From: Utricularia gibba
Taxonomy: Eukaryota > Streptophyta > Magnoliopsida > Lamiales > Lentibulariaceae
Assembly (NCBI GenBank): GCA_002189035.1
Contig: NEEC01000008.1
Span: 3,382,357 to 3,446,356, forward strand
Direction: 5' to 3'
DNA length: 64,000 bases
Shown here: positions 9,925-62,685 of the stretch, piece by piece
Layout of the letters: the number at the start of each line of letters is the position of its first letter
Position numbering within the stretch: position 1 is the first letter of the stretch
Notes under the pieces: model-generated
What the model was told of the DNA's origin: nothing
Seen by the model: only the letters and a program-made list of their open reading frames with translations
The model's database searches: none
Position numbers and translations under genes: made by a program

Positions 9925-10958
9925 TTAACCTGCATAACCAATGAACTCCTTGATGAAGTTGAGAATGGCGGAGGCTCTCCTGGCGTCAATCATGTCAATC
10001 ATATGGAACCCGGCGTCGTCGAAACGCGCCTCCACGAGCACGCCGTGCTCCACCAACATCTGGACGAAGCTCTGGTTCCGATCGATCAACAAGTCGCCGC
10101 CGAACCCGATGACCAGACACCTGCCAAGTTTCCTTAGTCGGCTCCTCATGGGCTTATCCACGAACGGGTTGCAGAATCGGTGATCGCGATCAGTTCCAGG
10201 CGGAAGGGCCAATTCCCACACTAAATCGAGCACTGGAAGGGGCAGATATTGATCGGCGGCCATTTTCAGCTCGCTCTTCGTCCGCTGCTTGGACCCGAAC
10301 AGCGGCTGATTGAGAATAGTGCCGACGAACTTAAGCGGCTGGATGTCGTCTTCCAGGCGAAGCGCCACATTGAACGCGATGTTCGCGCCGGAGCTTAAGC
10401 CGTTGAGGAAGCACTGGGAAAAGTCGCCGTAGTCGCGAATCCACTTGTCACCGTTATTCGCATCCCTGGCTTGGTCGCGTACCCAATGCACGGCGTCGAC
10501 CGCGTCATCGTATTGAGCCGGGAGGCGATGCTCCGGCGCCAGGCGGTACTCAACCGATACAACAATCGCAGGCACTTCCGCGGCTAGGCGGTTTCCAGAT
10601 TCATGGACATAGGCGTCGGAGACACTCATCATGATAAACACCCGGGGTGAAAGAAGAATACGATTGGTATACGGGCTGCCGGAGATCAAAACTTCAGACA
10701 AATTGCTCGTATAAAATCAACGAATGCTAGCAATAGCGTCTCACCATTTTCGTGAGGCATCTGCGCGGGTCGGTATATTCGGAGCCATGTCTTCTTATTT
10801 TCGTCAAGGGTGACATCCTTGCTTAAAACCGTCACGCCGGGGGTCCGGGGGTCCTCTCCGGTGGCCGGAACGGAGGGCATCTGGAGGTACCGTGTGAGAG
10901 TTCCATCGGGGTTGAGCGCGACCTTGAGATGCTCGTAAGGATCGAACTTGGAATGCAT
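9925..10958 (-). CDS. Plant carboxylesterase (CXE/GID1-like alpha/beta hydrolase), frameshifted
   Basis: Two exons on the minus strand: 10745-10958 (ATG at 10958) and 9925-10675, split by a 69 bp GT-AG intron (10676-10744). With one base added at a CCCCGGG run near 10641-10647 the protein is 321 residues, normal for CXE enzymes. As given, translation stops five codons after the shift. Motifs: IPIVFFFHPG where the family has the HGGG oxyanion loop, then EVPAIVVSVEYRLAPEHRLP, the nucleophile elbow GLSSG, the acid region GGDLLIDR and the catalytic His in AGFHMID. Ser, Asp and His of the triad are all present. The family hydrolyses small esters, and relatives include gibberellin receptors and hydroxyisoflavanone dehydratases. 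The substrate is unknown. The shift may be an assembly error or a real lesion in an otherwise well-kept gene. Confidence 0.8.
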
Positions 10959-11209
10959 TTTTGCAGATGAAAACGCCTTCTCCGCATGAAGATGTGATGG
11001 AGTCGTATGCTTATTACAAGGAGACGGTGAAGACACAACGCCGGTTGTCCGCAAACCTCGCCGCCAACGACGAGCTCTCCTCAAGTTTTAAATGGCGAAT
11101 ACCCATGTGGTTAGTTTTAATCGGGTCGGGTTTACTCGATTTGAGAAATGTAGTAGGAATCCAATCAAGCAAACCCGAATTTACAGGAAAGAAGAGCAAC
11201 TCGCCGGCG

Positions 11210-13730
11210 TTAAGATGCTTTCTCGACAGCGCCGTTGTCTAAGGATGCTGCCGGTGTCGAACCACCACCGGAGTTCGGGATATTCTTAGAGGAGGCGGAC
11301 TTTGCAGTAATAGAGCGGCCCATGAACTTCCCAGCCTTACTCAGGCCACTTCCAACTGCTCCTATACCTGTTCCGACCATGCCAGCCCCAGCCCCGAGCC
11401 CTGTTCCGACCAGTCCGACTCCAGCTCCGATTCCGGTCCCCACCAACCCAACACCGGAGCCCACGATGGAGGCTGCGCCATCAAGGGCGTCCATAGTGCT
11501 CCCAATCACCCCTGCCTCCTTTAGCTTCTTTCTTGCTTCCAGGATCTTCTTCTCCTCTTCAAGAGCCCGTAGTTGCTCTTCCTCGTTGAACTCATAGTAA
11601 AGCACCTACATCAGCAATGGCAAGTCTTACCAGAGACCGTCTCATATACCAGAAATCGAAGTATAAATTCACCTGAATCGTCAATGTCCCTCGATCCTTC
11701 TTGTCCTTGATCTTTAGCATATCAAGCGCAGGAAGCAGCTGAAGCACGATTTCTTTAGAAGTCCCAGCTTCCAGCTCGATCAAAGGCAGCTTTGCGATGC
11801 CCAGAAGCTTGTCCTGGCTGATGTCCTTATCGAACACCTGAAACAGATGGCATATACATGATACATCATTAGGCCATTGCGCTCAAATGCACAATATCCA
11901 TGAGACGACTGCATACCTCAAAAATGAGGGACTGTGTCTCCTTGTCTTCTGCAATCACCTCAAATGTCTGATCCCACACAGGGTTCAAGTTGTTGTCAAC
12001 AACCTTTGTTTTCACTTTGAAGAGAGGCCGAACGTATAAGACAACATACGGATCCGACTTTCCGATCATCTCCATGTTTTTCAGGGCAGTTGCTTTAACA
12101 ACGGTTACTGTCACCTTCCCCACAGGCTTAAGCTCCAGTTCACTGTAAACTCCCAGAGTTTAAAGCATCAGACATTCATTCTACTTCGTGTTTCTGTTAT
12201 GGGATTTTAAAGCGACTCGCCTTGTATCATTAGGCACTCCCCGAGAGGGACAACTATCCTATGAGGCCATTGTAGCATATCTGTTACAATGGTGTTAACA
12301 GTGCTCTTGTAAACAGAAACAAAATGTCAATAAGCTGACAGGAATTATGCACACTTCATAGGGATAAAGAAACATTAGATCTTACATCAATCATGTCTGA
12401 AAGACCAGGTACGGCTGTTAAACTTCCACCGATGGCCTTCAGAGTGTAGTCGATGCGTGGCTTTGGCTGCACCATTGAGATTAAATGAAGGTTTCATGGA
12501 ATATAGCAGTCGTTTTTATCAATGGATTGCAACAGACCTCAGCCAGGAGAGCAACAACTACTGCAGAAATGCAAGGAATTTCCTCAGAGAGTTGGAATAT
12601 CACCCGGATCACTGTGAAAACTTTTAGATCCTTCAGCTGCAACAAACAAAGGGACATAAACATCTCCATTAAAATGTATGGAATGAGATAGAACGAAGTG
12701 AGTGTTTTCTGAGTTAGAGAATTTGACAGCAACCTGAATCGGTAAGGAGGCAACAAAAGCAGCCTCGATGCCGAGGATAATGCTCGGATCACCACCCCAT
12801 CTGAGATCAATATCCATAGTGATCTGACCCTTTTTTAGACTCTGAACTCGGATCCCTGAAAAAGTAGTGTTCTGACTCAATGATGATGCCGGTATCTTGT
12901 AAGACCACCATCTTAGAAGAGATGATTGTATTGACCTTCAATCTTTGGAGCCACAGTTCCAAGAGACAATTTCTTGAACTTCATAGAAGTAATCCCCGGT
13001 GGACGATATTCTTCCAACAATGGCTCAACAGATTCTTTTATAACAACCTCTGCTGCCTAAGAAAACAGATTAAGCAATACATAAACCTTAAGCGGAAGGG
13101 AAAACAATACAACCACAAAACCATTGCCCAGCCTCAAGATCTCAAAATAGGTGCGCCACTACGGAATCTTGGTAACACTAAAGGGAGAGGATGATGAAGA
13201 ATTACATCTGCTACGTATGGCCATAACTTGCTTAGCATTTTATTCAGCCATTTCACCTGAAACGGTTCATAAAGAAACACTCAGACAGGTTAAAAAACGA
13301 TCCTTTGTCTCAATCCATTGAGAGAAAGCAAAAGAGAAAAATACACAAACCTGTTCATAAACAGGAAAAGATATCCATTCTGGAAAGCTTTCTCCGCATA
13401 ATTTCTTTAAATCATCTCGATTCAGACCGCTTAGAAGTTTAATATCAACTGCCTGTTAATCCCCAAAAGAATGGACAACCAAACATCACACTAAATGAAC
13501 CCAAGAAGATAAAAGAAGTTCAAGTGATCGTAAATTACAAGAGATCTAGTCAAAAGAAATGCCCAGATCACAAAACAAACCATTTCCAGTATCAAACAAG
13601 AAACAATAGCACATGGAAAAAGAACCTTGCAACCACGCTTGTTGCTTCTATAACGCATCATGTAGTTCCAACCCGCCATTAACGCGATACCTAACGAAAT
13701 CCCCAACAACATTCCTGAAACCAGACCCAT
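11210..13730 (-). CDS. CLB1: CLB1/SYT7-type SMP-C2 membrane-contact protein (NTMC2T4)
   Basis: Eleven exons: 13626-13730, 13351-13452, 13206-13256, 12936-13056, 12734-12855, 12538-12636, 12386-12466, 12221-12305, 11917-12142, 11673-11837, 11210-11605. The product starts with a membrane anchor (MGLVSGMLLGISLGIALMAG), then an SMP lipid-transfer domain (GITSMKF, KIEGIRVQSLKKGQITMDID, PCISAVVVALLAEPKPRIDY). One C2 domain follows (MIGKSDPYVVLYV, NNLNPVWDQTFEV, FDKDISQDK), then a helical stretch and a Gly-rich repeat tail (GVGLVGTGLGAG). This matches Arabidopsis CLB1/SYT7, a Ca-dependent lipid-binding protein at ER contact sites. Exon 8 is problematic. The conserved GVPNDTSELELKP reading needs one extra G in a G4 run (12239-12242) and a GC donor at 12219-12220. 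Alternatively a GT donor at 12236-12237 keeps frame and skips that segment. Length is 517 or 511 residues accordingly. Confidence 0.88.
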
Positions 13731-15601: not shown

Positions 15602-16956
15602 ATGACATCTAACATGAAAAGAGTGGTGGTACTGCACGCCGCCGCCGTCACGCCGTTGGACGAGTCGGCGGAGCTCCGCCTACACCTCACTTTCTTCGAC
15701 GTGGTATGGGTATTCTTTCACCCAATCCAACGTCTCCTCTTCTTCAACTACAGCATCTCCTCGCTGGAATTCCTCCAAACCGTCGTTCCTCGCCTGAAAA
15801 CATCGCTCTCCAGAACTCTATCCCGATACCTTCCCTTGGCCGGAAACTTAGTTCAACCCTTCAACTCCGATCCCCCGAGATACTCTACACTCCGGGAGAC
15901 TCTGTTTCGATCACTTTCACAGAAGCCGATGATTCTCTAGATTTTAATCATCTTACGTCACACCAAATCCGCGAAGCCGACGAATTCTACAACCTCCTTC
16001 CAGATTTGCCGACGGGATCCGAAGAAGGATTCAGCAAAACAGCGGTTTTAGCTCTGCAGGTGACGCTTTTCCCTAAAGCCGGTATATGCATCGGCTTCAC
16101 CAACCACCACGCCGTCGGAGACGCAAGCTCGATTGTTGGATTTATCAAAGCCTGGAGCTCAGACACGAAGCTAGGCGGGAATCAGTTTCAAGTTCCAAAC
16201 TTTGACCGGAGTTTGGTCGCCGACCCATCCCTTCGGCGAGCAAATATGTTCTGGAATCAGATAAAAAGCTTCAACATTGGAGTACCACCACCGAAATTCC
16301 CCACCAACAAATTCCGGGCAACCTTCGTTTTAAAGAAAACCCATATCCAATTTCTCAAAAACAGGGCACTGGAGATAAACCCCAATACCAAACATTTATC
16401 CTCTTTCACTGTAGCCCTTGGTTACTCATGGGTTTCCTGGGTGAAGTCCGCCTCCGAATCCGGGGAAACAGTCGATGATAACGAATCTGAGTTCTTCGGA
16501 TTTGCAGTTGATGTTCGAAATCGCGTTGACCCACCTCTCCCGGAAACATATTTCGGCAATTGCCTAGCTTTCGTGGTCGTCGAATCCACCCACGGAAATC
16601 TGAAATCCAAAGATGGGTTCTTCGAGGCGGTCGATTTGATCGGAGAATGCATCAGCGAGAAGGTGAATAAGAAGGATGAGATATTGAAAGATGCAGATGA
16701 TTGGCTGGTGAAATACGGACCTATATTGGGTATGCGTGTTTTTGGGGTGGCGGGTTCTCCGCGATTCGATTTGTACGAGGCTGATTTCGGTTGGGGAAAA
16801 GCTAGCAAGCTGGAGGCGGTATCGATTGATGCAGAGGAAAGCATTTCGCTGGCGAAGTCGCCGGAGTTTGAAGGAGGACTGGAAATTGGGTTATCTGCTA
16901 CCGAGAAGAAGATTGAAGCTTTTGCACGCCTCTTTCACGCCGGCCTCATTGCCTGA
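15602..16956 (+). CDS. BAHD acyltransferase, phenolic/anthocyanin glucoside malonyltransferase type (frameshifted)
   Basis: Single-exon gene, as is usual for this BAHD clade. ATG at 15602 or 15614. The first frame runs through LTFFDVVWVFFHPIQRLLFF and RYLPLAGNLVQP. The frame then changes at a C5 run (15872-15876), and the next frame continues directly with ILYTPGDSVSITFTEADDSL. One added C joins them into a 451-residue protein, normal for the family. Motifs: HXXXD as TNHHAVGDASS, the malonyltransferase-clade YFGNC, and DFGWG as YEADFGWGKASK. These enzymes move malonyl (or another acyl) from CoA to sugar hydroxyls of flavonoid or phenolic glucosides in the cytosol. The exact acceptor cannot be read from sequence. 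Both active-site motifs lie after the frameshift, so the gene is either functional with a sequence error, or very recently broken. Confidence 0.88.
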
Positions 16957-23500: not shown

Positions 23501-25368
23501 TGGGAACTCTAATGGCTTTAGCCTTCAAGAAATTTTTGAAGAGGAGTCTCATCAAAAGAAGAAGCTTGAAGAAGAAGTTAGAATTTTGCGAAATCAGTTG
23601 GCACAGTTATCCGTGGAAGCTAATCAGGTATGTTTTCGATACATTACATCATATGCAAAACATGAACATATCATCGTTTCATTAGCTAGGAAAAAGTATT
23701 CCAACTATGCTAGGTATTTCTCCAGCAGAAAGAGGATGCTCATTCTTCTCAGTTAAGATGAATTTTTGTATTCAAGTTTAACTGATTTGTCTCAATATGC
23801 ATTCTCACAGACCAGAAGTTACCCTGACAGAGGCAACAATGGGAAATCCCTAGGCATGATGAATTGTTCCTCGCCACTAAATTATGGGCAATACAGAGAT
23901 AATGATACCAGAGAAAGTGCATCAATTTCTAACCTTCATGAACAGGGTGATGATTATTATTATACTGATTCTATTCCTTTTCTTTGTTTCTCAGTTATAA
24001 TATAAACACATTTTGAACCCTTGTATGCTTACAAATTTCTTTATCTAACAGTTGGATTGCAAAAGATATTGTCGCTGCTGGAATCCGAAGACCCGAATGT
24101 GCAGATTCATGCGGTGAAAGTTGTAGCCAACTTAGCTGCAGAAGGTAATTCAGCCTTTTCACACTTGCATATTATCTGCATTCAAGTCCAATCTTATTAA
24201 GGTAACCCTATTATTTTAGAGAAGTGAAGTTTTTTTATAACTTACATTGCAGAAGCAAATCAGGAAAAGATAGTTGAAGCCGGGGGTCTCACTTCATTAC
24301 TGATGCTTCTGCGAAAGTACGAGGATGAAACAATTCGTAGGATTGCAGCGGGTGCAATCGCCAATCTTGCAATGAATGGTGACTACTTAATCATTTTGTT
24401 GTTGTATTTTGCAATCGTATCTGCTTCATGCCTTTTTCCTTCAAAAAATTTAGGCTTCGAAGATGGCAGCATCTTCCTTCCCCTTATTATTTCCCTTGAA
24501 ACATGAAAAATTTTCAGAGTCCAACCAAGAACTCATAATGGCTCAAGGTGGGGTGCCTCTCTTGGCGATGACTGGTACTAACGCTGAAGATCCTCAGACG
24601 CTTCGAATGGTTGCTGGAGCAATAGCCAATTTATGTGGCAATGGTATTAATTTCCAATGCTCTGCTCTAATACTCCCCATGTTCGCTATTTCTTCCCCAC
24701 TCGCCATCTTTTATTCCTTATTCATGCAATGCATTCGGTTTCCCAGATAAACTGCAAACAAGGCTGAGATCAGAGGGTGGCATCAAAGCTCTGTTAGGGA
24801 TGGTGAGATGCAGGCATCCAGATGTTCTTTCTCAAGTAGCTCGCGGCATCGCCAATTTCGCAAAATGTGAATCCAGGGTAGCAACCCAAGGTAAAAAGAT
24901 CTCCACCCACTTCAAGTGCATCTAAATATTTCCACAAAATAGTGAATCCTTTCTGTATCCCCGAATGATGTTCCAAGATGGCTCCTTTTTGCAGGCATCA
25001 GACCTGGTCGTTCCCTGCTTGTGGAAGACGGAGCCTTGCCATGGATAGTACAGAACGCCAACAATGAAGCATCACTAATCAGACGCCATGTCGAGCTCGC
25101 CCTTTGCCACCTCGCGCAGCACGGTAACATATACTTGAAACCACTCGCTCGTCCCCCCCATTTTTACTCCTCAAGATGCACAACATTACATGATCTCCCC
25201 CCTTGCAGAAGTGAACGCCAAGGACTTGATCAGCGGAGGCGCACTCTGGGAGCTCCTTCGCATCTCTCGTGACTGTTCCGGGACGACATCAAGGCGCTTG
25301 CCCGTCGAACTCTAACATCGAGCTCCATCTTCCAGGCCGAGATGCGAAGACTAAGGATAGAGGTGTAA
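20564..25368 (+). CDS. ARK: Armadillo-repeat kinesin (ARK family), frameshifted near the C-terminus
   Basis: Nineteen exons: 20564-20690, 20815-20915, 21013-21135, 21330-21515, 21627-21848, 21935-22079, 22252-22401, 22500-22588, 22688-22891, 23063-23161, 23275-23403, 23493-23627, 23811-23946, 24052-24144, 24253-24378, 24518-24643, 24747-24890, 24995-25123, 25209-25368. N-terminal motor: [13 protein letters not shown]-loop [10 protein letters not shown], switch [12 protein letters not shown], switch [18 protein letters not shown], and [14 protein letters not shown] coiled coil follows, then ARM repeats ([50 protein letters not shown]). ARK kinesins are plus-end motors that control root-hair and microtubule dynamics. 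In the last exon the frame breaks after SRDCS; one extra C at CCGGG (25278-25282) restores [20 protein letters not shown], ending at 25368 (874 residues). As given, translation stops at 25313-25315. Confidence 0.92.
23219..23240. repeat. (TA)n microsatellite in kinesin intron 10
   Basis: About eleven TA units in the intron between exons 10 and 11, directly upstream of the polypyrimidine tract. Likely length-variable; no functional claim. Confidence 0.8.
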
Positions 25369-26545: not shown

Positions 26546-26966
26546 TGTGGGAAAGGAGAGAACACAAGTGAGAAATGAAGTAACAGAATGAAACGCGAAC
26601 AGACGACACGTGGGAGGGTAATAAGATAAGAGAAATTCCTCATGAGTTAAGATAAGCAACAAGAGGAAAAATTGGATTGGATTATCGTATTCTAGCAGCT
26701 TGTCCTGTCAGGCCCTACACGGAAAGACAGGGACTTTTCATCAAATAGTTAGTCATTGGACAGCCCCTTGGTTCTGTCTTCCCGTGTGCACAAACATAGC
26801 CAACGGTATTCCAAAGATCGAGTCTTTTTCTTCTTAGTGTTGTTCTTCTGTAGGAGGACTTGGAGGGTTTCACGTTAAAACAATATACAAGCTCATTGAT
26901 TGAAAACAAAAGCAAACAAGTTTTTTTTCTGGTTCTTGCCCTGCCTCATGGAAAATCCGGGAGTCT
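26546..26966. other. Spacer between CML and DUF247 genes
   Basis: Holds the CML promoter/5' leader and, next to 26966, the 3' UTR of the DUF247 gene. Both are on the minus strand. Nothing else recognised. Confidence 0.45.
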
Positions 26967-41208: not shown

Positions 41209-42255
<1,047 letters not shown>

Positions 42256-45192: not shown

Positions 45193-47691
<2,499 letters not shown>

Positions 47692-48056
47692 TCCTTGCGA
47701 GGATGCGGGATTCTGCAAATTCAGACTGGTGGGTTTGGTTCGGTAGACGGGCTTTTTTCAGGCCGCATGGGTTTGAAAATTCCAACCAAATTGTTGGTGA
47801 GAAATGGTGGGTAGAAGGTTGTTAGTTTTGGGGGTTGAATTGAAGTGGAGCTCCTCAGGATCCCACCAACCTCCCTTCGCCTAACACTACACTGCAACCA
47901 TCACTTTCATGTCACATGAAGAAAAAATGTTGGTAAGTCTTGAAATATAGTTGTTGTGCACAGATGTAATGAAGTTCTCAAATGAAAAATTGAGGGTAGA
48001 ACGACGATACTGGAAGACATTCATATGGTCTCTTCACATGAATCCAATAGGCGAGA
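47692..48056. promoter_or_regulatory. EPSPS upstream region / METAP1A 3' region
   Basis: Only 365 bases lie between the EPSPS start codon and the stop codon of the upstream METAP1A gene on the same strand, so the EPSPS promoter and leader are compact or overlap the METAP1A 3' UTR. No specific element assigned. Confidence 0.4.
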
Positions 48057-51000
48057 TCATGAATTCAGCCAGGGGAAGACCTTGGGAGATGATGGCAGTC
48101 GTGCCGTGAGCACTTCGACTCCGGTATCAGTCACCTGAGTAGGGTATTCAGCAAATATAAGATCAATATGCGGGCAACAGAAATTGGGAGGTTGCTGTTG
48201 AATACAACGCATTACCAGGAGGGTGTGCTCAAATTGGGCACTTCGTTTCCCATCAGCTGTTACGGCTGTCCAGCCATCCGGCCACATTCGGTCACGCCAC
48301 ACTCCTACCAAGAGGTGATAAAGGAGATGAATGGAGACATCAAGAAGCACTTTCTCAATATGAATTGGATTCGATTCTGATATGAAAACCGAGAACAAAG
48401 CGTGAAACTATGAGGAAGTACCAGAATTAATCATTGGTTCTATCGTAAATGTCTGGCCAGCCTTCATCACTCCGGCAGCTTTATTTCCTATTTGCGTGTT
48501 AAGTTCCGACATTGCAAGTTAAAGCAAAGATCATATAAATCGGAATTCATAAGAACAATTTTCATCAAAGAAAGTGAGATTATTCAGCGGATACGTGCAT
48601 AATGTGGTATATTAGGCGCGCAATGGAAAAGCTCCCCAATACCATGGCCGCAGTATGATTTCACCTGAATTTTAAAACAAAGGATGTGATTATACGATGG
48701 CAATAATTAAACAAGCAATGGGAAATAAAGAAGCCGGTGAAATGTTTACCACTGAGAACCCAGACATAGTAGCATGGCGGTTAATAACCTCCCCTACTTC
48801 CCGAAATCGCACTCCAGGTTTGACTGATAAGTGCAGAATACAAATGATAGGATTGAATGTTCAGAATTATTGCTTTTGGAGAGAAATATTGAAAATTCAA
48901 GGGTGGTGGAAGGAGTAGAACTTAAGAGGTATTGAATCTGCACACTCACCAATTGCTATTGCTTTCTCTAAGCATTCATAAGTACATTGGACCAATCGTA
49001 AAGATTCTTCATCCACATTACCCACGAAGAAAGTCTCATTCAAGTCACCTGGATATCCATACGACAAAAGAAGCAAATATCAAACTTTAAGCCATACACA
49101 TCCCAAAATGACTTCCAAGTTATGATTACCATGCACCCCTTTGTAACACACAGTAACATCAACATTGACAATGTCACCATCCTCCAATTTCCTGATTAAT
49201 TAATGAGACGCAAGGGGTTACAGCTATCATCAAGGGTGTTAATGCACATAAATGGATTCCTATACCAAACTTTTTACTTGAAATCATGCAAGAAAATAAA
49301 AATGTTCATTCAACATTAACTTGAGGGAAAACCAACAGCTTCATACATCATTACAAGTCACGGGCTTGTGTTTATAAGATACCTTGCATCCGGAATCCCA
49401 TGGCAAATGACTTCATTTACTGACCTGAAAAGAAACAAGAACATTTTCTCAAATTACGCGATGATAGAAGAAACAATAAAAAGATAAGAAAAAAATTAAC
49501 GAGTACCTACGTGCAGCAAGATTTTGGGAAAAAGTGATAATTCAGTGGAGATGGATATCCTCCTGCCAGATTTCAAATTGAAAATAAAAATCAACATATT
49601 GCACAACAAAATTACCTATCCTATGTCCTTCATGTCCATCACTATTATTAGCAGTTAGTTCATCACGACTCCAATATCATAATTTCTTCATGATCATCTC
49701 AATGCATCACAAACCAGATTCTCTTAGCAATGTTTCACCCAAACCCATTTCGTAAACTACTTCATGATGCTAAATAAAAACAGCCTAGACTATATCTGAA
49801 ATAGTAAGGAATGAGATACCAGCAGCTATTGTTGCATCATGTACCACAGCATCAATTTCATCTGTAGTAATTCCAGGACGAATAATACGAGCTGCAGCGT
49901 CCAAAACTTCCCTTGCAATCTGGAAGAATCAATACAATCATATTTAAAGTAAAAATCATATGCCGGTTGAAAAAGAAACGAAAACAAATCTCATATTTCT
50001 ATTGCAAATCTACGGGACATTCAAACTACTTTGTGTAAGGAGCAGTAGGTAGCTCACTCTGCAAGTTTCACGCATTCTTTGAATTTGCTCCGGAGTTTTA
50101 ATCTTCCAGAAGGGAGGAAAACAGGTTTTAGGTAACAGTCTTTCACAACGAAAAAAATAAAGTATATCATGTTCATAAAAACAACGGTACCTCAACAACA
50201 TGCTGCAAGTCACTGTTTGGTTCAATTTTCGGAATTCCCTGATTGACACAAAGAAATAGCTAGGTATTGAACACCATATCCAAGCAGACAGAATAATCGA
50301 ACAATCTTGTATTCCCACATTCTCAATTATTCCTTCAATGCCTTTTAGAGATGAATACTCACATCAATTGCCCAGTCAGGGCGCTCAATGTGATCTGGTA
50401 CCAGCCGCCCTTTTGATATTGGATACGGTCTTAATGATCTGCAGTAACAACAGTGCAAAAAAAATATAGATCAAATGAAAAAGGATAGAATGGCACGTAT
50501 GCATACGAAAGAAATTTAAACATCAGAATTTTTGCAAAAGAATAAATTAACTGAAGGAAACTCTAACTTACAGCCACTGAAAAATGTGATTTCATTTACA
50601 TGTAGACACTACTGAAGAGAAAGAAGGCAAGAACAACCAATATAGAAGTGGCTAGTACCCTGTCCAATCAAACTGCGGAAGTTTAGCTGTGCGGGCCTGT
50701 CCCTTCCTTAAGCAATATAACCACCCATCGTTGGGATTGCTTATATTCTGATCTCCTTGACTTTCAGATACAGTGGAAGATTTTGGCTTCACGTGAACAG
50801 ATTTATGTGAAGTCCAAGACTCCTTGAAGCAATCTTGAGAACTGCACGATAAAACCTTGGCATCAAGAGGTGCTAGGAGCATCTATTATACATCAATGTT
50901 GATTTCGACTTAGTTGTTAACCAAGAATAAGTTTCAGTGGTATACCTTTGACTTAAAATTCAACAATAAAATGCAGTCTACTCATATTTACACGAATGAA

Positions 51001-51273
51001 TTCATAGCAATGTACCAGAAAGCAGCATCTTCACGGGGCAGCTTTAGTTCAACGCACTTCGGGCATCTGTAAAGAAAATAACATTAAATATTAGAAGTTT
51101 CCACTTCTTTCATAGGAAACGCAAGTTTCTAACTTGCATTGACCTGCTGAAGAACCGCAAAGAATCACACACAAAAGAAAGAACGCAACAAATACATACT
51201 GAAGATGAGCAGGTTTGCCGCATTTAGCACACGCCAGCGTTGCACTCTGCGCTGAACCGGATTCACCCGCCAT
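48057..51273 (-). CDS. MAP1A: Methionine aminopeptidase 1A (cytosolic MetAP1)
   Basis: Sixteen exons: 51200-51273, 51016-51066, 50659-50841, 50363-50438, 50191-50238, 50058-50102, 49820-49919, 49511-49562, 49383-49424, 49130-49191, 48950-49048, 48750-48823, 48595-48664, 48422-48487, 48216-48304, 48057-48134; 402 residues, frame intact. The N-terminal zinc-finger region has [20 protein letters not shown] and [18 protein letters not shown] (a C6H2-type, ribosome-associating domain). The pita-bread catalytic core follows: [39 protein letters not shown] (the two Asp metal ligands), [19 protein letters not shown] (His), TFTIEPMI (Glu) and [10 protein letters not shown] (Glu). It removes initiator Met from nascent cytosolic proteins. 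All five metal ligands are present. Start ATG 51273 gives [19 protein letters not shown], normal for MAP1A. Confidence 0.93.
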
Positions 51274-52186
51274 CTCTTCAAGAAATGATTGAAATTACGA
51301 ATAAGAGACATTATTACCAAACATCAAAATGTCCCCAAGCTTGACACGCACACCGCCCATCACCAGTAAAAAGAACACCACCAATTAGAAAAGCGCCATA
51401 GCCCGTACCTGGATTCGTAGTAATTCAAGCGGATGTCTGAGAATTAGGGTTCTCCTGCGAGCTCTGCGGGGCAGAAAAATTACACGTCCGGAGTATTTGC
51501 TACTTCCACTCCTAGTTTCCTCTTTACCACTACTCTCTTTTTTTATTCCTTTTTTAATATTAAAAAGCATTACAACTCTCCCCTCCAATAAAATTAGTAA
51601 ATCAATTTTAACACGCAACTGTACGGAAAACGTGTTGGCAAATTAATAATAGTGATCAAATTTCTAACTTTAATAGAATCAGAAATTATTAAAAAACTGT
51701 AATTCATAAAAATTATCAACAAATACAATATATGAGTAATTAAAATATTCAATAGATTAAATTAGTATGAGGAGAAGTGATCCATCTAATCCACTAAATA
51801 CCAACAAATAATATAAAATAAATATCACAAAAATTTTATAATCATCGTTAATCAAACTCGTCATATGGACAGGGTTTGGACTCGGGTTGCGCTTGTCGGG
51901 TTTGCCCCAAATCCATTTCACTCATGATGCAATATAAATTTGATTTCTAACTGATATTGCAATTCGATTTTTCATATAATTAATTCCAAATTTATTTTCC
52001 ATTTCAAATTCATTTTTGAAAGGTTGAAGGAGGGGTTTAGTGATTTTGGATTTGCACGCCTACGGTGCGCCATGACTCATCCTCGCCGTCTCCCACTTTT
52101 CTTGTAATTCTTCTTCTCCTTTTAACAAGAAATGGTCTGCGACACGAGGGATTGAATTGACAGGTATACCAAAAAGCGAACTATTT
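51274..52186. other. METAP1A upstream region and AT-rich spacer
   Basis: METAP1A promoter and leader (first 250 bases), then AT-rich spacer and the SAUR 3' region. No gene or repeat recognised. Confidence 0.45.
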
Positions 52187-52696
52187 TCAAACGTTTTCGA
52201 TGGTCGTCTTCTTCGTGCATATCCTCTTCCATCTCCAGGCCTTGTGGCAGCTCTGCACCGCCCGGATCCGGCTTCGCACCGATTCGAACTCGGAGATCCG
52301 GCAGGGTATCGTTATCCCGCCCGGATGATTATACCCGAATTCCTTTTCGGATTCCTTGAGCAGGTCCCAGAAGAAGGGGTGGTTGAAGTACACAACCGGC
52401 ACGAAAACTTTCTGGAAGTCGTCATCCTCCTCCCCAACGTAAACTGCTATTTGCCCTTTTGGGGCTGGAGGAGGTAACCCGATCCGGCTATATTTCGGGC
52501 CGGGTAGATGTTTCCCGGTCAGGACTGCTTTAAACCTGGCTCTCAGGCGATTGATGAGCTCTGAAAAGGCGTTGCGGTGTGACTCCTGCGCAGGCTCTAG
52601 ACGGCGATAGCCTTTCGAGGAGCATCCGCGTCGGGAAAATCGCCGGAGAAGAGTGGAGATGCGGCGTTTAATGAAAAAGACCCGTGTCCTTCCCAT
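52187..52696 (-). CDS. SAUR (small auxin-up RNA) family protein
   Basis: Intronless, 169 residues, ATG 52696. The conserved SAUR domain reads GQIAVYVGEEDDDFQKVFVP, VVYFNHPFFWDLLKESEKEF and GYNHPGGITIPCRISEFESV. The 80-residue N-terminal extension rich in Arg and Ser (MGRTRVFFIKRRISTLLRRF) is typical of the longer SAUR36/SAUR32-like group. SAUR proteins promote cell expansion by inhibiting PP2C.D phosphatases and so activating plasma-membrane proton pumps; some longer members affect senescence. Which subgroup this is cannot be settled from one sequence. Frame intact. Confidence 0.88.
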   Translation of the reverse strand: MGRTRVFFIKRRISTLLRRFSRRGCSSKGYRRLEPAQESHRNAFSELINRLRARFKAVLTGKHLPGPKYSRIGLPPPAPKGQIAVYVGEEDDDFQKVFVPVVYFNHPFFWDLLKESEKEFGYNHPGGITIPCRISEFESVRSRIRAVQSCHKAWRWKRICTKKTTIENV

Positions 52697-54837
52697 GGTT
52701 CCCGGCGCCGCTGTGGACGTGGTTTCTGTTGTCCCTCGCCGGAAAACTCTCTAAAACAGAGCTCCCTTTGGTCCAACCACAGGGTAGCACCAAAGGCGGG
52801 TTGTGAGACGCCGGGAGAATGGCTGAGACTGAAGCTGCAGATAAACAGGGGCGTGTGGACTTGAAGAATTCAGTAACGAGAAATAACGTGGAAATTTCCG
52901 AAATTGCGGAAATTCATAGCCACGCGTGACCTTCTGATTGGCCGGGTGGACCTACGCCAATTACAAATGATCGATACGTTTTATCATTCTTATAATATAA
53001 ACTAAATGCTCATGTGTGCCAATGTATGATTTAATAATTGATTATTTGATAATATATATGTAAAAAATATATAAATCAATTTCCTTTGGATAAGACGAAA
53101 ATCAAATAGGGCATTCGTACCCCGTTCTTGAATGTTGAAAAAAACCAACACGTGCGTTGAAGCCGTACGCACACCTTGAGGGCCCCACATGAGTACGGAT
53201 CGCGATGCTTTAGCGGAACGAGACACGGCTCTAGATTTTTTCATATCCTCAAAAAAAGGAAAAATCTCCAGCTTCATGTCGGAAAAGTCAACACTCAATA
53301 AGGGAAAATTTGTCGTACGGAAGCGAAATCGTCAACACACGAGTCAATGCGAGGTCTCGCGTCTGGGCTTGTTTAAAAGCCCACCACATCTGGGTCAATT
53401 GATGGGCCACGGCCCACGCACGAGTTTTAATCTTTATTTTATTAATTTTTTAAAAAATGAGGGCCCATTCTGTTTTCTAAATTTTCTGAATTATTTTATT
53501 TAATTTTTGAAAATTTTAATGTTTAACCATTCTGTAGTAAAATCAAAAAAAATTCAAATTCTGTAATTCAAGACATGATCCAATGCATGAAAGAGTTTGG
53601 ACACCATTTCGAGTGTTTTTTAAGAAAAAAAACACTAAAAAAAGGGGAGCAGGTTGGTACCCACTAAGGTACTACACGAAAATTGAATTCGAAAGAGGAG
53701 ACACGGGGAAACCAAAAGGACAATCTGTAAAAGGTGTCGGACACGGCAACATATGCAGTCGCATTCTCAACTTAACACCCTACACCAACTCTTCTGCAAA
53801 TTTGATCAATCCCGTTTTCATATTTTTTTAGATGCGATGTTCATGTCACAACATAAGTGTTCAGTTTCTTTTTCGGACTGCAATGTATAAGATTCGAGCC
53901 GAAGGAACACTAAACTTGCAGCAAGAATCAGTAATGGGGTTCTTGTGTATAAGAGAGGGAGTGACACATAATGAGAGGCCCATGCACACGTCGGTTTCCG
54001 GTTCTCTTTCCGGGCGGCTCTGCGGCGTCTGCTCCTCTGACTGAGTCTCCTCCGATCTCCCATTTCCCGCTGATCCATTCAATCAGTTCCCATTTCCATT
54101 TCCTCCCCAGTATAATTAAATAAATCTCCATGAAATCGGTCCCCACTTGCAGCAACCTTCTCATCATATATAGATACAACCAAGTTTTAAAATCGAAAAT
54201 AAAATGAATTATACAGAAGAAAGTATTATCCAGACAAGCACAGGGTTGAAATCTGAATCTGAGATGTGAGTTTGGAAAGAAAAATCCTAGGAAATAATAC
54301 AAATGAATGGCATTTTAGATTCTGAGGCTTGTTTGAGTGTTGTTGGGTAGCGTGTTTGAGTACAAAAGGATGGATAGGCGAGTTATGTCACTTTGGAAGT
54401 ATTCGCTTTATAATCTTTATTTATTTCCCAGTTGCAGCAAAAGGCTCCAAACCCGGTCGTCGCTTTTCAAAGAAAATGTCTTCCCGGCGGCGGGAGGTGA
54501 ATACAGTTAACTAAGTAACGAAACCAGAGGAACGGACGAAAGAGGGTAATAAGGAAGCTAAACTCGAATTAGGAACATGCACTAGATCTTGTATTTCAAT
54601 GGACAAAGGAGGCTTCTGTTTTCCTTGACTGTCTTGTTGTTCTGCCGCCTGTCTTTTGGTAAACAGAAGCCCAAACACAAAAAACATTCGAAGGAAGATC
54701 AGTGAAAACCCTCATGATTCACACACAGACAGACAAGAAAGAGAAAAACTCTTTCTTTTCAATCTCTGTATATAATCACTTTACTCGCATGCTGTTCCTC
54801 TATCAATCAGTCAAGCCTTCAGGCGTCACACAGCAGA
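52697..54837. promoter_or_regulatory. SAUR / YABBY divergent upstream region
   Basis: Upstream DNA of the SAUR (minus) and of the YABBY gene (plus). It is AT-rich at 52980-53060 and 53430-53570, with moderately complex sequence elsewhere. Some open frames exist (for example 53928-54302 minus) but have no protein similarity and sit in what should be the YABBY promoter. Nothing else assigned. Confidence 0.4.
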
Positions 54838-57429
54838 ATGTCCACTTCTTCTTGTTTTCAACCCGAACAGCTCCCTACCCATCTCCAAGAGAAGCTCTGC
54901 TACGTCAAGTGCACTCTCTGCCAAACCGTCCTCGCGGTAAAGTGTAAACTCCCACCTTAAGATTCTGAGTAGAAGAGTGATAAATTTTTCCTGTCTCTTG
55001 ATGGCTTACGAGATATTCCCAGGTCAGTTAATTGATTTACTTCATAGGTGAGTGTTCCTTGTGTGAGCTTGTTGAAGACGGCGGCGGTTCGTTGCGGCCA
55101 TTGCAGCAACCTATTCTCTTTGAACATGCGGGGAGTTCTTCTTCCTGCTACTCCTAACAATCAGCTCCAGTTTGGGAACTCCTTCCTCACTCCTCACAAC
55201 ATTCCGGTAGAACTAGGGTTTTCAGAGCCCAGAGAAACCTTCACTTTCTTTTTTTATTAAAACAACTCCATTACAGGGGGATTTTCTCACTGCACCGGTG
55301 AACCAGCAGGGTATCCATCAGCAGATCCCCACCCACACGCCGACACCGTTCCGGGGAATCAACGACCAGCTTCCCAAGCCACCCTTGGTTCACAGACGTA
55401 AGCTTCTTTTCCGTTCTCCAGCCATGGCTAAACTTTAAGCTAAACGCACACTTACCGCTGTGATATCTACCTCATTGGCATGTGCTATCTGATGGTTCTT
55501 TCACCATCAAGACACTTCCCTTTATCAAAGCAGTTAATTGGTTCCCAGACAAGAAGATAAAAACTGCTCTTTTTTACTCATCAGCAGTTTTGCCCCATCC
55601 TCAGAAATGGGAGTTTCAATCCTATTCTTCTGATACCCAGATTGTTCATCAACACTTCAGCGTGTCATGACAGCCCTTACAGAAAAAAAAAACCCCTATA
55701 TTTGCTGTTTTTCTCACTAGGGGTTATTTTATGAAGGTGGAATCATAAAATAATGATGGAGAAATGATGGGAAGATGGTAATGACAGTAAACAGTGAAAC
55801 AATAAAAAAAGTGAAAAAAGACAGTGAATTTATTGCTCTTCATAATTTCTTCACTTGTCCCATTTTTTTTTTTTCTGTTTCAGCTCTGGAGAAACGACAA
55901 AGAGTGCCTTCTGCTTACAATCGCTTCATCAAGTAAGCTTCACTCTAACCCAGTTTTGTAACGATTTTCTGAATTCTAAATGAATGAATGTTCATGATAG
56001 GAGCACACTTAAGTGGTATGAAATTCCAAAACCCTAATTTCAAGTTTTTAGAATAATTCTCCAATAATAATTTAGTATCATTTATGCTAAAGAAATCGAA
56101 TGGATTCAGAAAAAACAGTAGAATGCTAAATCCCACCAAGTGTCCTGGGGTGTGGAATGGCAGCCTTAGGAGCGTCTTTTCAGGCTCCTTGATGCAATGA
56201 AAGCCCGAGTGTTGGGAGAGGAAAAAATTAGTGAAATACATCTTTATGTATTTTTATTTGCAAAATACATCCTTTTGTATTGAGTTAGGAAAATACATCA
56301 TTTTACATTAATTGCACCGGTCGACACTCGCCGCTGATCTCCGCCTTGTAATACTGAATCAAATCTCGGAGTTGGCTCACTTTCGTGAAGTAATGCACAC
56401 CGTAGACTTCGACTGACGGGTGCCTCTACGGCCCCCAAAGTTGAGAGAACTCCAGAGGAACATTTCGTGGTCATCCCAAAACCAATAGATTGCACGGCGT
56501 CGCCGGAGAACTTCGGCGGTGTACCTCACTTCCGAAGCAGACATACGGCTACTGACAGCGGTGAAATTCTACGACGCATAGTATAAAAGGCATGGGCAAC
56601 AGATCCAGGAAGCGACGAATCATCTCGTATGACGGACGTCGCAGGTCTGGCTTAAACATAAAGCCTGGCCGAAGAAGATGATAACCTTCAGCACCGCGTG
56701 GTGCTAGGCGGCAATGGTGGGGCCAGATTTCTGGACCGGCGGGTGAATGACGATGAACTTGGCGGACTTCATTCCAAATACGACGGAGTCAACAGCAATC
56801 GCAGTCGATTTAGTAAAATTATGTATTTTACTAACTTAATACAAGAAGATGTATTTTGCAAACAAAAAATGCAAAAAGATGTATATCACCAACTCAGCCG
56901 TTGGGAGAGAAAGGTTTCAGACAGGTGAACCCTAAAGGCGTCTGTTGACAAAAGAACCCTTTTTCGACTTTTTGCAGAGAGGAGATTCAACGAATCAAAG
57001 CTGGAAACCCAGATATCAGTCACAGAGAAGCTTTCAGCGCCGCTGCCAAAAACGTACGCCACCACTCCATTTAACAACAACAGTCGCCCTACTAAACCCT
57101 AGGGCTTCCTTTTCGTTTTCTCCTAACCCTGATTCGCCCTTTCCCGTGCTCATCTGTTCTAACCATGATTAGTTTGGAATATTCGTGTTCTTCTCCATTG
57201 TTGCTGCAGTGGGCTCATTTCCCTCACATTCAGTTCGGTGGCACGCCCGATCCGCCAGTGAAGAAGCCGGATGTCTGCCAACAGGTACCTATACATCTCG
57301 TAACAATGCGACTTCCGATCGATCGGTATCCGAATTATCCGACGTGCAAATGCTGTGCAGGATGGAGATGATGCGATGGCGAAAGGAGGTATCCTCGCCC
57401 CCGAAACCAACATCGGAATATCACCGTAG
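54838..57429 (+). CDS. FIL: YABBY transcription factor of the FIL/YAB3 group
   Basis: Seven exons: 54838-54936, 55048-55206, 55277-55397, 55884-55932, 56978-57053, 57210-57284, 57361-57429; 215 residues, frame intact. The N-terminal C2C2 zinc finger is formed by [18 protein letters not shown] and [17 protein letters not shown] variable linker follows ([27 protein letters not shown]), then the HMG-like YABBY domain [51 protein letters not shown]. The ending [20 protein letters not shown] matches FIL/YAB1-type C-termini better than YAB2, YAB5, CRC or INO. FIL-type YABBYs specify abaxial identity of leaves and floral organs. Intron 4 (55933-56977) is enlarged by a Mutator-like element (56221-56899), which lies cleanly between splice sites. 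Confidence 0.92.
56211..56220. repeat. Target-site duplication, left, of MULE copy 1
   Basis: GTTGGGAGAG, identical to 56900-56909. Confidence 0.85.
56221..56899 (-). mobile_element. Non-autonomous Mutator-like element (MULE), copy 1, in YABBY intron 4
   Basis: 679 bp element flanked by perfect 10 bp target-site duplications (GTTGGGAGAG at 56211-56220 and 56900-56909). Terminal inverted repeats of 86-87 bp (56221-56306 and 56813-56899) share blocks such as ATACATCTTT, TTTGCAAAATACATC and AAAATACAT. The interior is GC-richer and lacks a transposase; it holds an open frame (minus strand 56298-56495 reversed relative to copy 2) also found in copy 2. Long TIRs and a duplication of 10 bp (usual range 8-11) are the marks of Mutator-superfamily elements. 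The strand given is relative to copy 2. Confidence 0.85.
56900..56909. repeat. Target-site duplication, right, of MULE copy 1
   Basis: GTTGGGAGAG, identical to 56211-56220. Confidence 0.85.
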
Positions 57430-59598
57430 AAAATTTCGACTCGTGTTGTTGCTAATGTGGTTAGGGTTTCTTCTTAGTCAACTACCTTGTCAACTTCCCA
57501 TATCGTCCCTAATCAGACGTTTGTTTTGTCTCTCAAATTGCATAAGGATTGCGGGGAGTAAAAAGTTGAGGAGATTGGGCTGTTCCTTTTGGGCCAAGCC
57601 CAGAAATGGGTTAGCCCATGCACGTCAATCCATGTAATGATTTTAAATACATTTCACTTCATTGAATGCTTGGTTGATGAAGCAGGAAAAAATAAGTTTA
57701 ATTTATTTGAATTTAAGTAAATATGATGTATAAGAATTAGTTTTTTAGATTGTATTTAGTTAATATTAGTATAAATAATATTAAATAAAATAAAGTAAAG
57801 TGTAGTTTTACATAAACTATTGTATAAAGATTTTTTTTTAAAAAAAAAAACCTCATAATTCAAGTTTAATTTAAACACATGAAGTAAACATGGTACAATT
57901 TGGAATTTTACCTTTAAACCCCTATCACTACCATAAATCAAATATTACCATAGGGTAACTATGACTTTGGGATGAGAATTGGAAAGGAGGAAGAATCCTT
58001 TCATTTTTATTATAATAATGTTGCATTGAATTGAAGTTAGGTTATATAGCATAGACTAGTTGTTTAAGCATCAAAGTACAATGAACTAGTAACTAATTTA
58101 TTCTTGCCTACCGCTTACTAGTTTGCATTCCAACACTTTGTTTTTGTTACATATTCGTTTCATATTATTTGCAGCAAAATAACTAGTTAACTTAGCCAAG
58201 CGATAGCATCATGCGTTTAGAAAAGGCATCAAGTGTAACATTGCTAGCATTCATAGCGGATCAAGTCAATACAAACAATGTATCATTTTACCTTGATTAA
58301 AATATTGAAAAATCGAATCTGAGACTAATTTTACCATGGCCCGACCCATCGGTTATTGATGAAGAATAAGATGAGATTGATTAAAATGACTATTTAAATC
58401 TTGTACGAAGTCTTTTCTTAAATATGATGGAGTATTTTTATAGTAATTCTAAAATTAAATATGTTTGATCTAGAATAATCCAAGGATATATGATCTTATG
58501 GGAATGCAGAACAAAAATGAAAAAAAATGTAAAATTATGTAATATCGTGCAAGGTGGGTATAAGTCATTACATTAATAATCTAAAAATTATTGAAACGAA
58601 TTTTAAAAAGTTTTTGATTTAAAACGAACTAGATCTAATCTCAAATCTTAAAACATTGGGCATTGAAATGGACATGTCAATTTTTTATTTCAAAAATTTG
58701 AGTTTTTGTTTCTTTTTATTGAGATAATATAAAAGAATAAACAGATTTTATTTTTTTGCATCTTTATAAAAGACAATAATAATAAAAAAGAATTTATTAT
58801 TTTATATACAATTACATTTATGCCCCTGAAAATGTTTAAAGCGATGTGCACGTCCCTCCGAATTGACCAAAGAGTCCCCCCACCCTCCCGGCCCCAGCAC
58901 TCCTTTTATTGCCTTTTCTGGAGCTTTTACTCTGGTGCTCGAGCGACCGAAAGAGACGTTGAAATAAGTAATCATTTGGAAAATAAAAAATCATTATTTG
59001 AATTTTCCCTAAAATAAAAAATCAATTGTATTGTTTCTAATTTGACGCATTAAAAAACCACCCAATATTAATACAAATATTTGTTACTTAATTCAAATAA
59101 ATAATATAGTTAAATAATTCCCTTGATATTTTTAAATAACGAAAACCAAAACCAAGGCCTTCCCTTTCGCTTTCTTGCCGTCAGAATCGGAGAAGCACCA
59201 GGACAGCAGTGTGTAATTATCAGAATACCCCTGAGGCGATGCGCAGTGTGTTGCGGAGAGACCGAGGGGTAGTTTCGGGAGCCCGGGGGTTCGATTCTTC
59301 CTGCCAGTTCAGGGCTCCGATGCAGCGTTGGTCTCTGTAGAAAACTACAGTCGAAAAGCAACCATCTCCCTGGGGCAACGCCCCTTCCACGCGTGCACCC
59401 CACGACCCTTTTTCTTGAAAAATGAAGTTTGAATTCCAGAACGTTGCGGATTGGATTTGAAAGCCCAGTACTGTGGAGCAAGAAAAGATCCGGTGAGCCT
59501 GGGGGAGCGAGTGTTCGAAAAAAAATGGAGAGAATCGCGTGGGAGCACGGTAGAGAGATGCGTGTGGGCCTGCGAGGAGATAATGAAGAAGTCTAGCA
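57430..59598. other. AT-rich intergenic region between YABBY and GRAS loci
   Basis: YABBY 3' UTR, then about 1.2 kb of AT-rich DNA without coding sequence. From about 58840 to 59598 base composition rises, and the stretch 59400-59598 could be distal GRAS leader or promoter now separated from the gene by the second MULE. Open frames on the minus strand here (59110-59651) run into the MULE and show no family similarity. Confidence 0.4.
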
Positions 59599-59608
59599 GG
59601 AGGATAAG
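59599..59608. repeat. Target-site duplication, left, of MULE copy 2
   Basis: GGAGGATAAG, identical to 60296-60305. Confidence 0.85.
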
Positions 59609-60295
59609 GGCTGAGTTGGTGATATACATCTTTTTGCATTTTTGTTTGCAAAATACATCTTATTGTATTAAGTTAGTAAAATACATAATTTTACTAAATC
59701 GACTGCGATTGCTGTTGACTCCGTCGCATTTGGAATGAAGTCCGCCAAGTTCATCGTCATTCACCCGCCGGTCCAGAAATCTGGCCCCACCATTGCCGCC
59801 TAGCACCACGCGGTGCTGAAGGTTATCATCTTCTTCGGCCAGGCTTTATGTTTAAGCCAGACCTGCGACGTCCGTCATACGAGATGATTCGTCGCTTCCT
59901 GGATCTGTTGCCCATGCCCTTTTATACTATGCGTCGTAGAATTTCACCGCTGTCAGTAGCCGTATGTCTGCTTCGGAAGTGAGGTACACCGCCGAAGTTC
60001 TCCGGCGACGCCCGCCGCCGTGCAATCTATTGGTTTTTGGGATGACCCACGAAATGTTCCTCTGGAGTTCTCTCAACTTTGGGGCCGTAGAGGCACCCGT
60101 CAGTCGAAGTCTACGGTGTGCATTACTTCACGAAAGTGAGCCAACTCCGAGATTTGATTCAGTATTACAAGGCGGAGATCAGCGGCGAGTGTCGACCGGT
60201 GCAATTAATGTAAAATGATGTATTTTACTAACTCAATACAAAAGGATGTATTTTGCAAATAAAAAATACATAAAGATGTATTTCACTAATTTTTC
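59609..60295 (+). mobile_element. Non-autonomous Mutator-like element (MULE), copy 2, upstream of the GRAS gene
   Basis: 687 bp, inverted with respect to copy 1 and highly similar along its whole length, with a few small indels (for example one extra C in GATGACCCACG). It has 86 bp terminal inverted repeats (59609-59694 and 60210-60295) and perfect 10 bp target-site duplications. The right end is about 250 bp from the GRAS start codon. No transposase inside. The open frame 59964-60218 shares its last 55 or so residues with the frame in copy 1, including [20 protein letters not shown]. Confidence 0.85.
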
Positions 60296-60305
60296 GGAGG
60301 ATAAG
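60296..60305. repeat. Target-site duplication, right, of MULE copy 2
   Basis: GGAGGATAAG, identical to 59599-59608. Confidence 0.85.
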
Positions 60306-60547
60306 TGGGGAAGCCAGACAAACTTAGAAGGGCGAGGTGAAGAACAAGAACTTGGGTTTTTCACGGAAGGAAGCTTCTTTCTTTGTTTTTCTTACTTTTT
60401 TGATGTCGCACTCATCCACCCGATTTCTTCTGAATCTGCCATTGCAGGAAGGGTGCATGTTTATGTGGTGTTCTTGAGGTTCTTGCATTGTGGATGGTGT
60501 TTTCTGGGGTGTGGTCTTTGCTGTTTCGGTTGGAGTTTGATTTTTAG
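60306..60547 (+). promoter_or_regulatory. GRAS gene 5' leader
   Basis: The 242 bases between the second MULE and the GRAS ATG. The sequence is of leader type (G/T-rich, no long ORF in frame with the gene). Anything upstream that normally drives the gene must lie beyond the MULE. Confidence 0.4.
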
Positions 60548-62685
60548 ATGAAGGGGATGCCCTTGCCCTTAGATTTTGAGGGGAAAGAGGTGTTGGACTT
60601 GGATTTGATCGTGAAAAATCGAACCTTTTTCTCGGACAGTGGCGGTGAGTTGTTGCAGCTGAGTAATTGCAGTGGTTTTGGTGAGCCTACGTCTGTGCTG
60701 GAGTCTGCTTCTACTCCGAGCAGACCCACATCGTCGTCAACACTGTCTTCATCTCTCGGCGAGGAGGGGGGAGCACCGTTGCCGGTAGTGCTTCTACTGA
60801 CACGGCGGCGAAATGGCAACGGGGCTCTACTGCTACAAGCTCCAATGCCGTTGGAAAAGCTCTTATCGCATCTCCCCGTTCTATGGAATTTGAAGGCGTC
60901 GGCTGTGGGGGGACGGAGAAATTTACGATGGAGGATTGGGAGAGCGTGCTGTCGGCGTCGACTGCGGTTTCTCCCAATCACGAAGAGTCCATTCTTCGGT
61001 GGATTATGGCTGACGCTGAAGACGCAGCTCTGGTTATGAACAAGGCTCCTCAGATTGGGGCCGGCGGCGTGTTTCCGGCGGCGGAGTTCGACTTTAGCAG
61101 TGGGTTCGCGGCTGTGCATCAGACGCCCACGCTTCCAGTCTTCCTCGATAACGACAGACCCAGTTCTCAAAGGATTTCTTCTTTGTCCCCTATCCTGATC
61201 AACCTACATGTTTCAAGTTTTCCCCCATTTCCCAAGGCATTCTTCATCCCTGTCCCGAAACGAAGCCCTCCATTTTAAATTCTCACATTCTGATCAATCA
61301 GCAGTCCCAAAATCCCTCCTTTTTCTTCCCCGTCCCATCCTCGGTGCAGCAAGAACAGAGCATCTTTGTCCACCCACCGGCGAAAAGACAAAACTTCGGT
61401 CGCTTCGCTGACGTCGGCCTTGACTCTGCCGGCCAGATCTCTAAAGGGCCTTTCATGGATTCTGGGCAACATACAGTGTTTCTTCAGCAGCAATTTTCCC
61501 CTCAGCTTCAGTTTCTTCCTAGTTGTCAACACCAATGGCAGAAGGAGAAGCCAAAGTTAACTGTTTGTGATGATTTCGGACAGCAGGCGACGAGTGATCT
61601 GCTTTACCAGGCGGCGGAGCTCGTCCAAACAGGGAACTTTGTACTCGCGCACGGGATATTGGCGCGGCTCAATCATCAGCTCTCTCCCAATGGAATTCCT
61701 TTCCAGAGGGCTGCTTTTTATTCCAAGGAGGCATTGCAGTTGCTCCTCCAATCCACCAGCAACAACGTCGATGATCCCTTGATGACGACGGTGAGGAAGA
61801 CGCCGCCATTTAGCATCATTTCTCGGATTGGAGCATACAAAGCCTTCTCTGAGATATCCCCACTTCTGCACTTCCAAAACTTGACTTCCAATCAAGCCAT
61901 TCTCGAGTCTCTGGAGGGGTTCAACCGGATCCACATTATCGACTTCGATATTGGTTATGGCGGACAGTGGGCTTCTCTTATCCAAGAACTTGCATTACGA
62001 AGTGGCCGATCTACTTCCATGAAGATCACTGCTATCGTCTCGCCATTGATCAACAATCACCTCGAACTCGGCTTGATCCGGGAAAACTTGACTCAGTTCG
62101 CGAATGATGTCAATATATCGTTCGAGTTCGAAGCTACGAGCATCGATTCATTGAGCTCTGGTTCATGGTCAGAGGCTGGCGCAGTTGCTGTGAATCTCCC
62201 AGTTGGATCCGTAGCCAATTATCAGTTCTCAATGCCTTTGATTCTCAGGTTGGTGAAGCAGCTACGGCCCAGAATCGTCGTCTCCACAGACCAAGGATGC
62301 GATCGGACTGATCTCTCGTTCCCTGACCATCTGATCCATGCTCTGCATTCCCTCACCACCGTATTGGACTCCATTTATGCTGCTAATCCCCATCTTGATA
62401 CCCTGCAGAAGATCGAAAGCTTCTTGATTCAACCGCACTCGAACGAATCGTGACGATTCCGTTCCCTGAAGAAGACTCAGCATTGGAGGTCCATGTTGTT
62501 GTCATCCGGCTCTCCCCGTGGCATTCAGCAACTTGGCAGAATCGCAGGCAGAGTGCGTCATCAACAGGACTCCGGTTCAGGGATTTCAGGTCGAAAAGAG
62601 GCAGTCGTCGCTGGTTCTTTGCTGGAGAGGGCAGGAGCTCACTGCTGTCTCCGCCTGGAGGTGCAGATTCCGATCAAGTCCGTGA
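60548..62685 (+). CDS. SCL6: GRAS protein of the SCL6/SCL22/SCL27 (HAM) group, miR171 target; several frameshifts
   Basis: Intronless. It starts MKGMPLPLDFEGKEVLDLDL as HAM/SCL6 proteins do. Frames used in order: 60548 to about 60770 (GEPTSVLESASTPS); then, after one lost G in the G6 run 60766-60771, GSTVAGSASTDTAAKW and FTMEDWESVLSAS. After one lost C at 61159-61161 it continues KDFFFVPYPDQPTCFKFSPI, HPPAKRQN and the GRAS domain. The LHR I region reads LLYQAAELVQTGNFVLAHGI. The VHIID motif reads HIIDFDIGYGGQWASLIQEL, and later motifs include QLRPRIVVSTDQGC. An in-frame TGA stands at 62451-62453, yet coding similarity continues in two further frames: KKTQHWRSMLLSSG, then VAFSNLAESQAECVINRTPV and the SAW end SLVLCWRGQELTAVSAWRC, to 62685. 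HAM proteins maintain meristems. Sequence error or real decay cannot be separated here. Confidence 0.85.
61655..61675 (+). promoter_or_regulatory. miR171 target site in the GRAS coding sequence
   Basis: The 21 bases (core ATATTGGCGCGGCTCAATC) are fully complementary to mature miR171 of the SCL6-targeting type. They encode ILARLNH inside the GRAS domain, the same place where SCL6/22/27 are cleaved in Arabidopsis. This explains post-transcriptional control of the gene and supports the HAM assignment. Confidence 0.92.

What the first reader, a model, noticed from the sequence alone, without database searches (positions are those of the whole stretch)
10641..62520. Eight genes each broken by apparent one-base losses in short G or C runs
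Joining exons by frame shows at least nine positions where two perfectly conserved reading frames meet at a run of G or C, and where adding exactly one base restores the family sequence: carboxylesterase (10641-10647), CLB1 (12239-12242), BAHD (15872-15876), kinesin (25278-25282), DUF247 (29357-29359), AHL (34510-34512), EPSPS (45841-45844) and GRAS (60766-60771, 61159-61161). All nine have the same sign (a loss) and all are at G/C runs. Essential genes such as EPSPS are included, while eleven other genes here are perfectly intact. Natural pseudogenes would show mixed insertions, deletions, stops and A/T sites. A systematic homopolymer contraction in the sequencing or assembly is the best explanation. 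Gene callers would either truncate these genes or invent small introns.
Basis: partly seen in the sequence, partly recalled or inferred. Interest (0 to 1): 0.85.

Follow-up and report, generated by a model that had tools for sequence, protein, structure and literature searches.

The report
Assembly lost bases in G/C runs
Genes in this plant contig look broken because the genome assembly dropped single bases, mostly inside short runs of G or C; intact copies elsewhere in the same assembly show most of the genes are fine, so this is a technical error rather than biology.

Summary
All nine frame breaks are present and all are net one-base losses at G/C runs. The window is the last 64 kb of contig C414. 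A second contig, C422, covers window 25750-64000 at about 99.9% identity and carries exactly one more base at AHL, EPSPS and both GRAS breaks. Paralogs on contig C3 carry exactly one more base at CLB1, BAHD, kinesin and EPSPS. So seven of nine sites have a copy with the longer run. Carboxylesterase rests on homologs only. DUF247 is shared by both contigs and is unresolved.

C422 is broken where the window is intact (DUF247 twice, GRAS once). The contigs differ by 31 single-base indels but few isolated substitutions. Discordance is far higher at G/C runs of 3-6 than at A/T runs of equal length. The artefact is assembly-wide: of 27 clean frame junctions in four families, 24 are net -1 and three fit two or more losses; no single-base gain was seen.

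The species is probably Utricularia gibba (PacBio), by inference.

The parts
10641..10647 (-). Frame break in a CXE carboxylesterase (Abhydrolase_3)
   Evidence: Pfam profile 9-207 downstream; upstream frame ends at residue 89 of 8vce_A and downstream frame starts at residue 90; no second copy found
12239..12242 (-). Frame break in a C2-domain (CLB1-like) gene
   Evidence: C3 and C451 paralogs have one more base at this run; C2 domain just downstream
15872..15876 (+). Frame break in a BAHD acyltransferase
   Evidence: Pfam 5-78 and 93-429 in frames differing by -1; C3 paralog has one more base and an open 457-aa frame
25278..25282 (+). Frame break near the C-terminus of an armadillo-repeat kinesin-like gene
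   Evidence: C3 paralog (82% identical) has one more base here; the Arm repeat match upstream is weak
29357..29359 (-). Frame break near the N-terminus of a double-DUF247 gene; unresolved
   Evidence: C422 has the same run but lacks two further bases (29374, 29385) and so reads open; spacing matches the second DUF247 unit only if one base is missing
34510..34512 (+). Frame break in an AT-hook (AHL) gene
   Evidence: C422 has a run longer by one; the AT_hook match is weak
45841..45844 (-). Frame break at an exon start in EPSP synthase
   Evidence: C422 has one more C; C3 copy has one more base; Pfam EPSP_synthase on both sides
60763..60771 (+). First frame break in the GRAS gene
   Evidence: C422 has one more G, at 60765, and is open
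61187..61190 (+). Second frame break in the GRAS gene (reader placed it at 61159-61161)
   Evidence: C422 has one more C, at 61191
62433..62514 (+).
   Evidence: C422 and C416 agree against the window at 62433, 62454, 62511 and 62514
25750..64000 (.). Stretch duplicated in contig C422 (reverse complement), about 99.9% identical; C416 also covers 61801-64000

Best explanation
The breaks are consensus errors of a long-read assembly. Short runs, above all G/C runs of 3-6 bases, were called one base too short. The genes themselves are intact. The error occurs across the whole assembly and is denser in the last 2 kb of the contig, probably because few reads cover the end. Shown: the missing bases are present in another contig or in paralogs at seven of nine sites, losses are reciprocal between contigs, and the sign is the same on many other contigs. 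Inferred: the platform (PacBio continuous long reads assembled with HGAP, probably Utricularia gibba) and the cause of the end effect.
For: Second contig with one more base at AHL, EPSPS and both GRAS breaks. Paralogs with one more base at CLB1, kinesin, EPSPS and BAHD. C422 broken where the window is intact: DUF247 at 27383 and 28873, GRAS at 61375. Over 36.9 kb the contigs differ by 31 single-base indels and few isolated SNPs; discordance per run for G/C lengths 3, 4, 5, 6 is 1.4, 4.8, 18.9 and 22.2%, against 0, 0.36, 0.56 and 3.0% for A/T. Three-way comparison in the last 2.2 kb: C416 and C422 agree against the window at about a dozen places, nearly all of them losses in the window. Assembly-wide: 24 of 27 clean junctions in GRAS, BAHD, KCS and DUF247 are net -1; the three others fit two or more losses. 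Four GRAS paralogs are broken at the same GC-rich RxGGPP codons. Long-read assemblies are reported to keep mostly homopolymer-length errors (PMC8812927, abstract), mostly false deletions in one nanopore example (PMC12007338).
Against: No reads or transcripts were available. DUF247 29357 is shared by both contigs, so it could be real or a repeated systematic error. Carboxylesterase has no second copy, and its oxyanion-hole motif would be non-canonical even with the frame followed across. C414 and C422 also differ by real transposon insertions, so they are not simply the same molecule read twice.
Confidence: 0.96

Rival explanations
1. The breaks are real: the C414 haplotype carries a set of young pseudogene alleles while C422 carries functional ones.
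For: C414 and C422 appear to be two real haplotypes, with a copia element only in C422 and two small elements only in C414.
Against: Indels outnumber isolated substitutions several-fold, the reverse of natural variation; losses are reciprocal; nearly all are one base. Families on many other contigs show the same one-signed pattern.
Confidence: 0.02
2. The errors are confined to a low-coverage contig end.
For: Window-only losses cluster in the last 2 kb.
Against: Seven of the nine sites lie 18-53 kb from the end, and the same breaks occur far inside other contigs.
Confidence: 0.03
3. Some sites (DUF247, carboxylesterase) are real frameshifts in diverging genes within a background of errors.
For: DUF247 loss is shared by both contigs; carboxylesterase has a non-canonical oxyanion motif even when the frame is followed across.
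Against: The rest of both reading frames is long and conserved, and the spacing of the first DUF247 unit equals that of the second only with one more base than the window has.
Confidence: 0.12

Closest known systems
Residual homopolymer-length errors of long-read-only assemblies (PMC8812927, PMC12007338)
   Same: Single-base losses in short runs that fragment reading frames; deletions prevail
   Different: Here G/C runs are much more affected than A/T runs of the same length; the nanopore example in PMC12007338 found more A/T errors
PacBio HGAP assembly of Utricularia gibba (described in PMC5793159: 581 contigs, N50 3.4 Mb, 88x)
   Same: Several hundred contigs, similar lengths of the large contigs; total size about 100 Mb fits my recollection of that assembly
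   Different: 516 contigs are held here, not 581; PMC5793159 gives a genome size of 82 Mb; species identity was not proven

Membership tests
Long-read consensus indel artefact | Independent copy of the same locus has the longer run | tested here: met
   Seven of nine sites: contig C422 and/or C3 and C451 paralogs
Long-read consensus indel artefact | Indels far outnumber substitutions between overlapping contigs | tested here: met
   31 single-base indels against few isolated SNPs in 36.9 kb; C416 vs C422: 16 against 6, five of the six being one 5-bp inversion
Long-read consensus indel artefact | Rate rises with run length | tested here: met
   G/C: 1.4% at 3, 4.8% at 4, 18.9% at 5, 22.2% at 6; A/T rises from 6 on
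Long-read consensus indel artefact | One sign across the whole assembly | tested here: met
   24 of 27 clean junctions net -1; three others fit two or more losses
Long-read consensus indel artefact | Raw or short reads contradict the consensus | not testable with these tools
   No reads held
Real pseudogenes | Mixed insertions, deletions and stop codons within one gene | tested here: not met
   Losses only; frames otherwise long and conserved

The most novel reading that the evidence does not exclude
The shorter G/C runs are real in the DNA of some genes and the plant makes up for them by editing or frameshifting during expression. DNA contigs alone cannot exclude this at carboxylesterase and DUF247, but the other sites argue strongly against it.
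Probability: 0.005. Interest if true: 0.85.

Novelty: not a real feature. Interest (0 to 1): 0.1.

Why it matters
Gene models from this assembly will be truncated, split or given false small introns, most of all in genes with G/C runs. In the GRAS family well over a quarter of the loci look broken. Counts of gene loss or pseudogenes taken from this assembly without short-read correction would be inflated, which would matter if, as seems likely, the species is one studied for its small genome.

Tried and rejected
Real heterozygous pseudogenes: rejected by the ratio of indels to substitutions and by reciprocal losses. Contig-end effect alone: rejected, since interior genes of other contigs show the same breaks. 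Missed introns: junctions departing by more than 30 nt from the profile expectation were set aside; 13 of the clean junctions are exactly one nt short. UDPGT family search gave matches too short to judge frames. A further possible break at 39730 was seen, but no Pfam family matched, so it is not counted. No Rfam match in the window. The one search I made for papers on frameshifts in this genome found nothing relevant.

Full report
Setting. The window is G000:C414:3382357-3446356, the last 64 kb of a 3.45-Mb contig in a 100-Mb plant assembly of 516 contigs. The lengths of the large contigs seen, mostly 2.6 to 8.5 Mb, resemble the PacBio HGAP assembly of Utricularia gibba described in PMC5793159 (581 contigs, N50 3.4 Mb, 88x). 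This identification is an inference.

A second copy. Contig C422 (59.5 kb) overlaps window 25750-64000 in reverse orientation at 99.0-99.96% identity. It continues into contig C416, which covers window 61801-64000 a third time. The right part of the window can therefore be checked against the same assembly.

Site by site. C422 has one more base at AHL 34513, EPSPS 45845, GRAS 60765 and GRAS 61191. Its GRAS frame is open through the first two breaks and, in a second open frame after its own break at 61375, through the C-terminus. For the sites left of 25750, paralogous copies on C3 have one more base at CLB1 and kinesin and at BAHD, where the C3 gene has an unbroken 457-aa frame. CLB1 also has a C451 copy with the extra base, and EPSPS has a C3 copy with it. 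In carboxylesterase the upstream frame ends at residue 89 of 8vce_A and the downstream frame resumes at residue 90, so the frame break is real in the sequence; following the frame across would not give the canonical HGGG, which makes this the weakest case. At DUF247 both contigs share the run at 29357. C422 lacks two further bases nearby and so returns to frame. The spacing from IP to GP is 22 residues in the second DUF247 unit of the same protein, which fits the first unit only with one more base than the window has (sequences). That is suggestive, not proof.

Reciprocity. C422 is broken at 27383 and 28873 in DUF247 and at 61375 in GRAS, where the window reads open. Over 36.9 kb there are 18 single-base losses in the window and 13 in C422, against 16 mismatched positions, of which ten sit in the last 2 kb and five of those form a 5-bp inversion. 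Natural variation shows the opposite ratio (general knowledge).

Run dependence. Per homopolymer run, discordance between contigs is 1.4, 4.8, 18.9 and 22.2% at G/C lengths 3, 4, 5 and 6, and 0, 0.36, 0.56 and 3.0% at A/T lengths 3-6, rising to about 17-20% at A/T lengths of 8 and above. Counts at the longest runs are small, and the figures include contig ends.

Assembly-wide test. The GRAS family (intron-poor) has many split loci far inside other contigs. Four paralogs on C244, C375, C142 and C2 break at the same G/C-rich codons, RxGGPP. Seventeen GRAS junctions located with a profile built from intact members are all -1; I chose these from the list, leaving aside those with large gaps and two net +1 cases, so their sign is not an independent result. 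The count over GRAS, BAHD, KCS and DUF247 applies one rule to neighbouring partial matches that I copied from the tables, and gives 27 clean junctions: 24 net -1 and three in the +1 frame. Of these three, two have exactly two nucleotides missing and one (C3) contains several -1 breaks. Thirteen junctions, eight of them GRAS, have exactly one nucleotide missing. Two of the counted junctions are C422's own DUF247 breaks, and two come from the window. No junction shows a single-base gain.

Contig end. In the last 2.2 kb the window disagrees with both other contigs at about a dozen places, nearly all of them losses in the window.

Verdict. The corrections are that A/T runs of six or more are affected too, that one coordinate is about 30 bp off, that the list is incomplete, and that two sites lack independent proof. 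Nothing new about biology follows, but gene models from this assembly need short-read correction.

Noticed in passing
39881-39885: C422 carries a 6.2-kb copia-like LTR element here with identical 446-bp LTRs and a 5-bp target duplication (CCTTT), apparently inside an exon; the window has the empty site. A recent, polymorphic insertion. The copia label is from reading its open frames, not from a family search.
   Followed up: partly
56223-56900 and 59608-60296: Two 97.5% identical ~690-bp elements in opposite orientation, with ~80-bp terminal inverted repeats and 9-10-bp target duplications (Mutator-like); both sites are empty in C422.
   Followed up: partly
25750-64000: C414 and C422 differ by three transposon insertions but very few SNPs, which suggests two haplotypes separated recently with active transposition, or a mixture of clones.
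   Followed up: no
63006-63010: A 5-bp inversion: AACAC in window and C416, GTGTT in C422.
   Followed up: no
26970-29372: One 801-aa open frame with two tandem DUF247 domains.
   Followed up: no
39730: C422 has one more G here, within open frames of a gene that matched no Pfam family; possibly another broken gene.
   Followed up: partly
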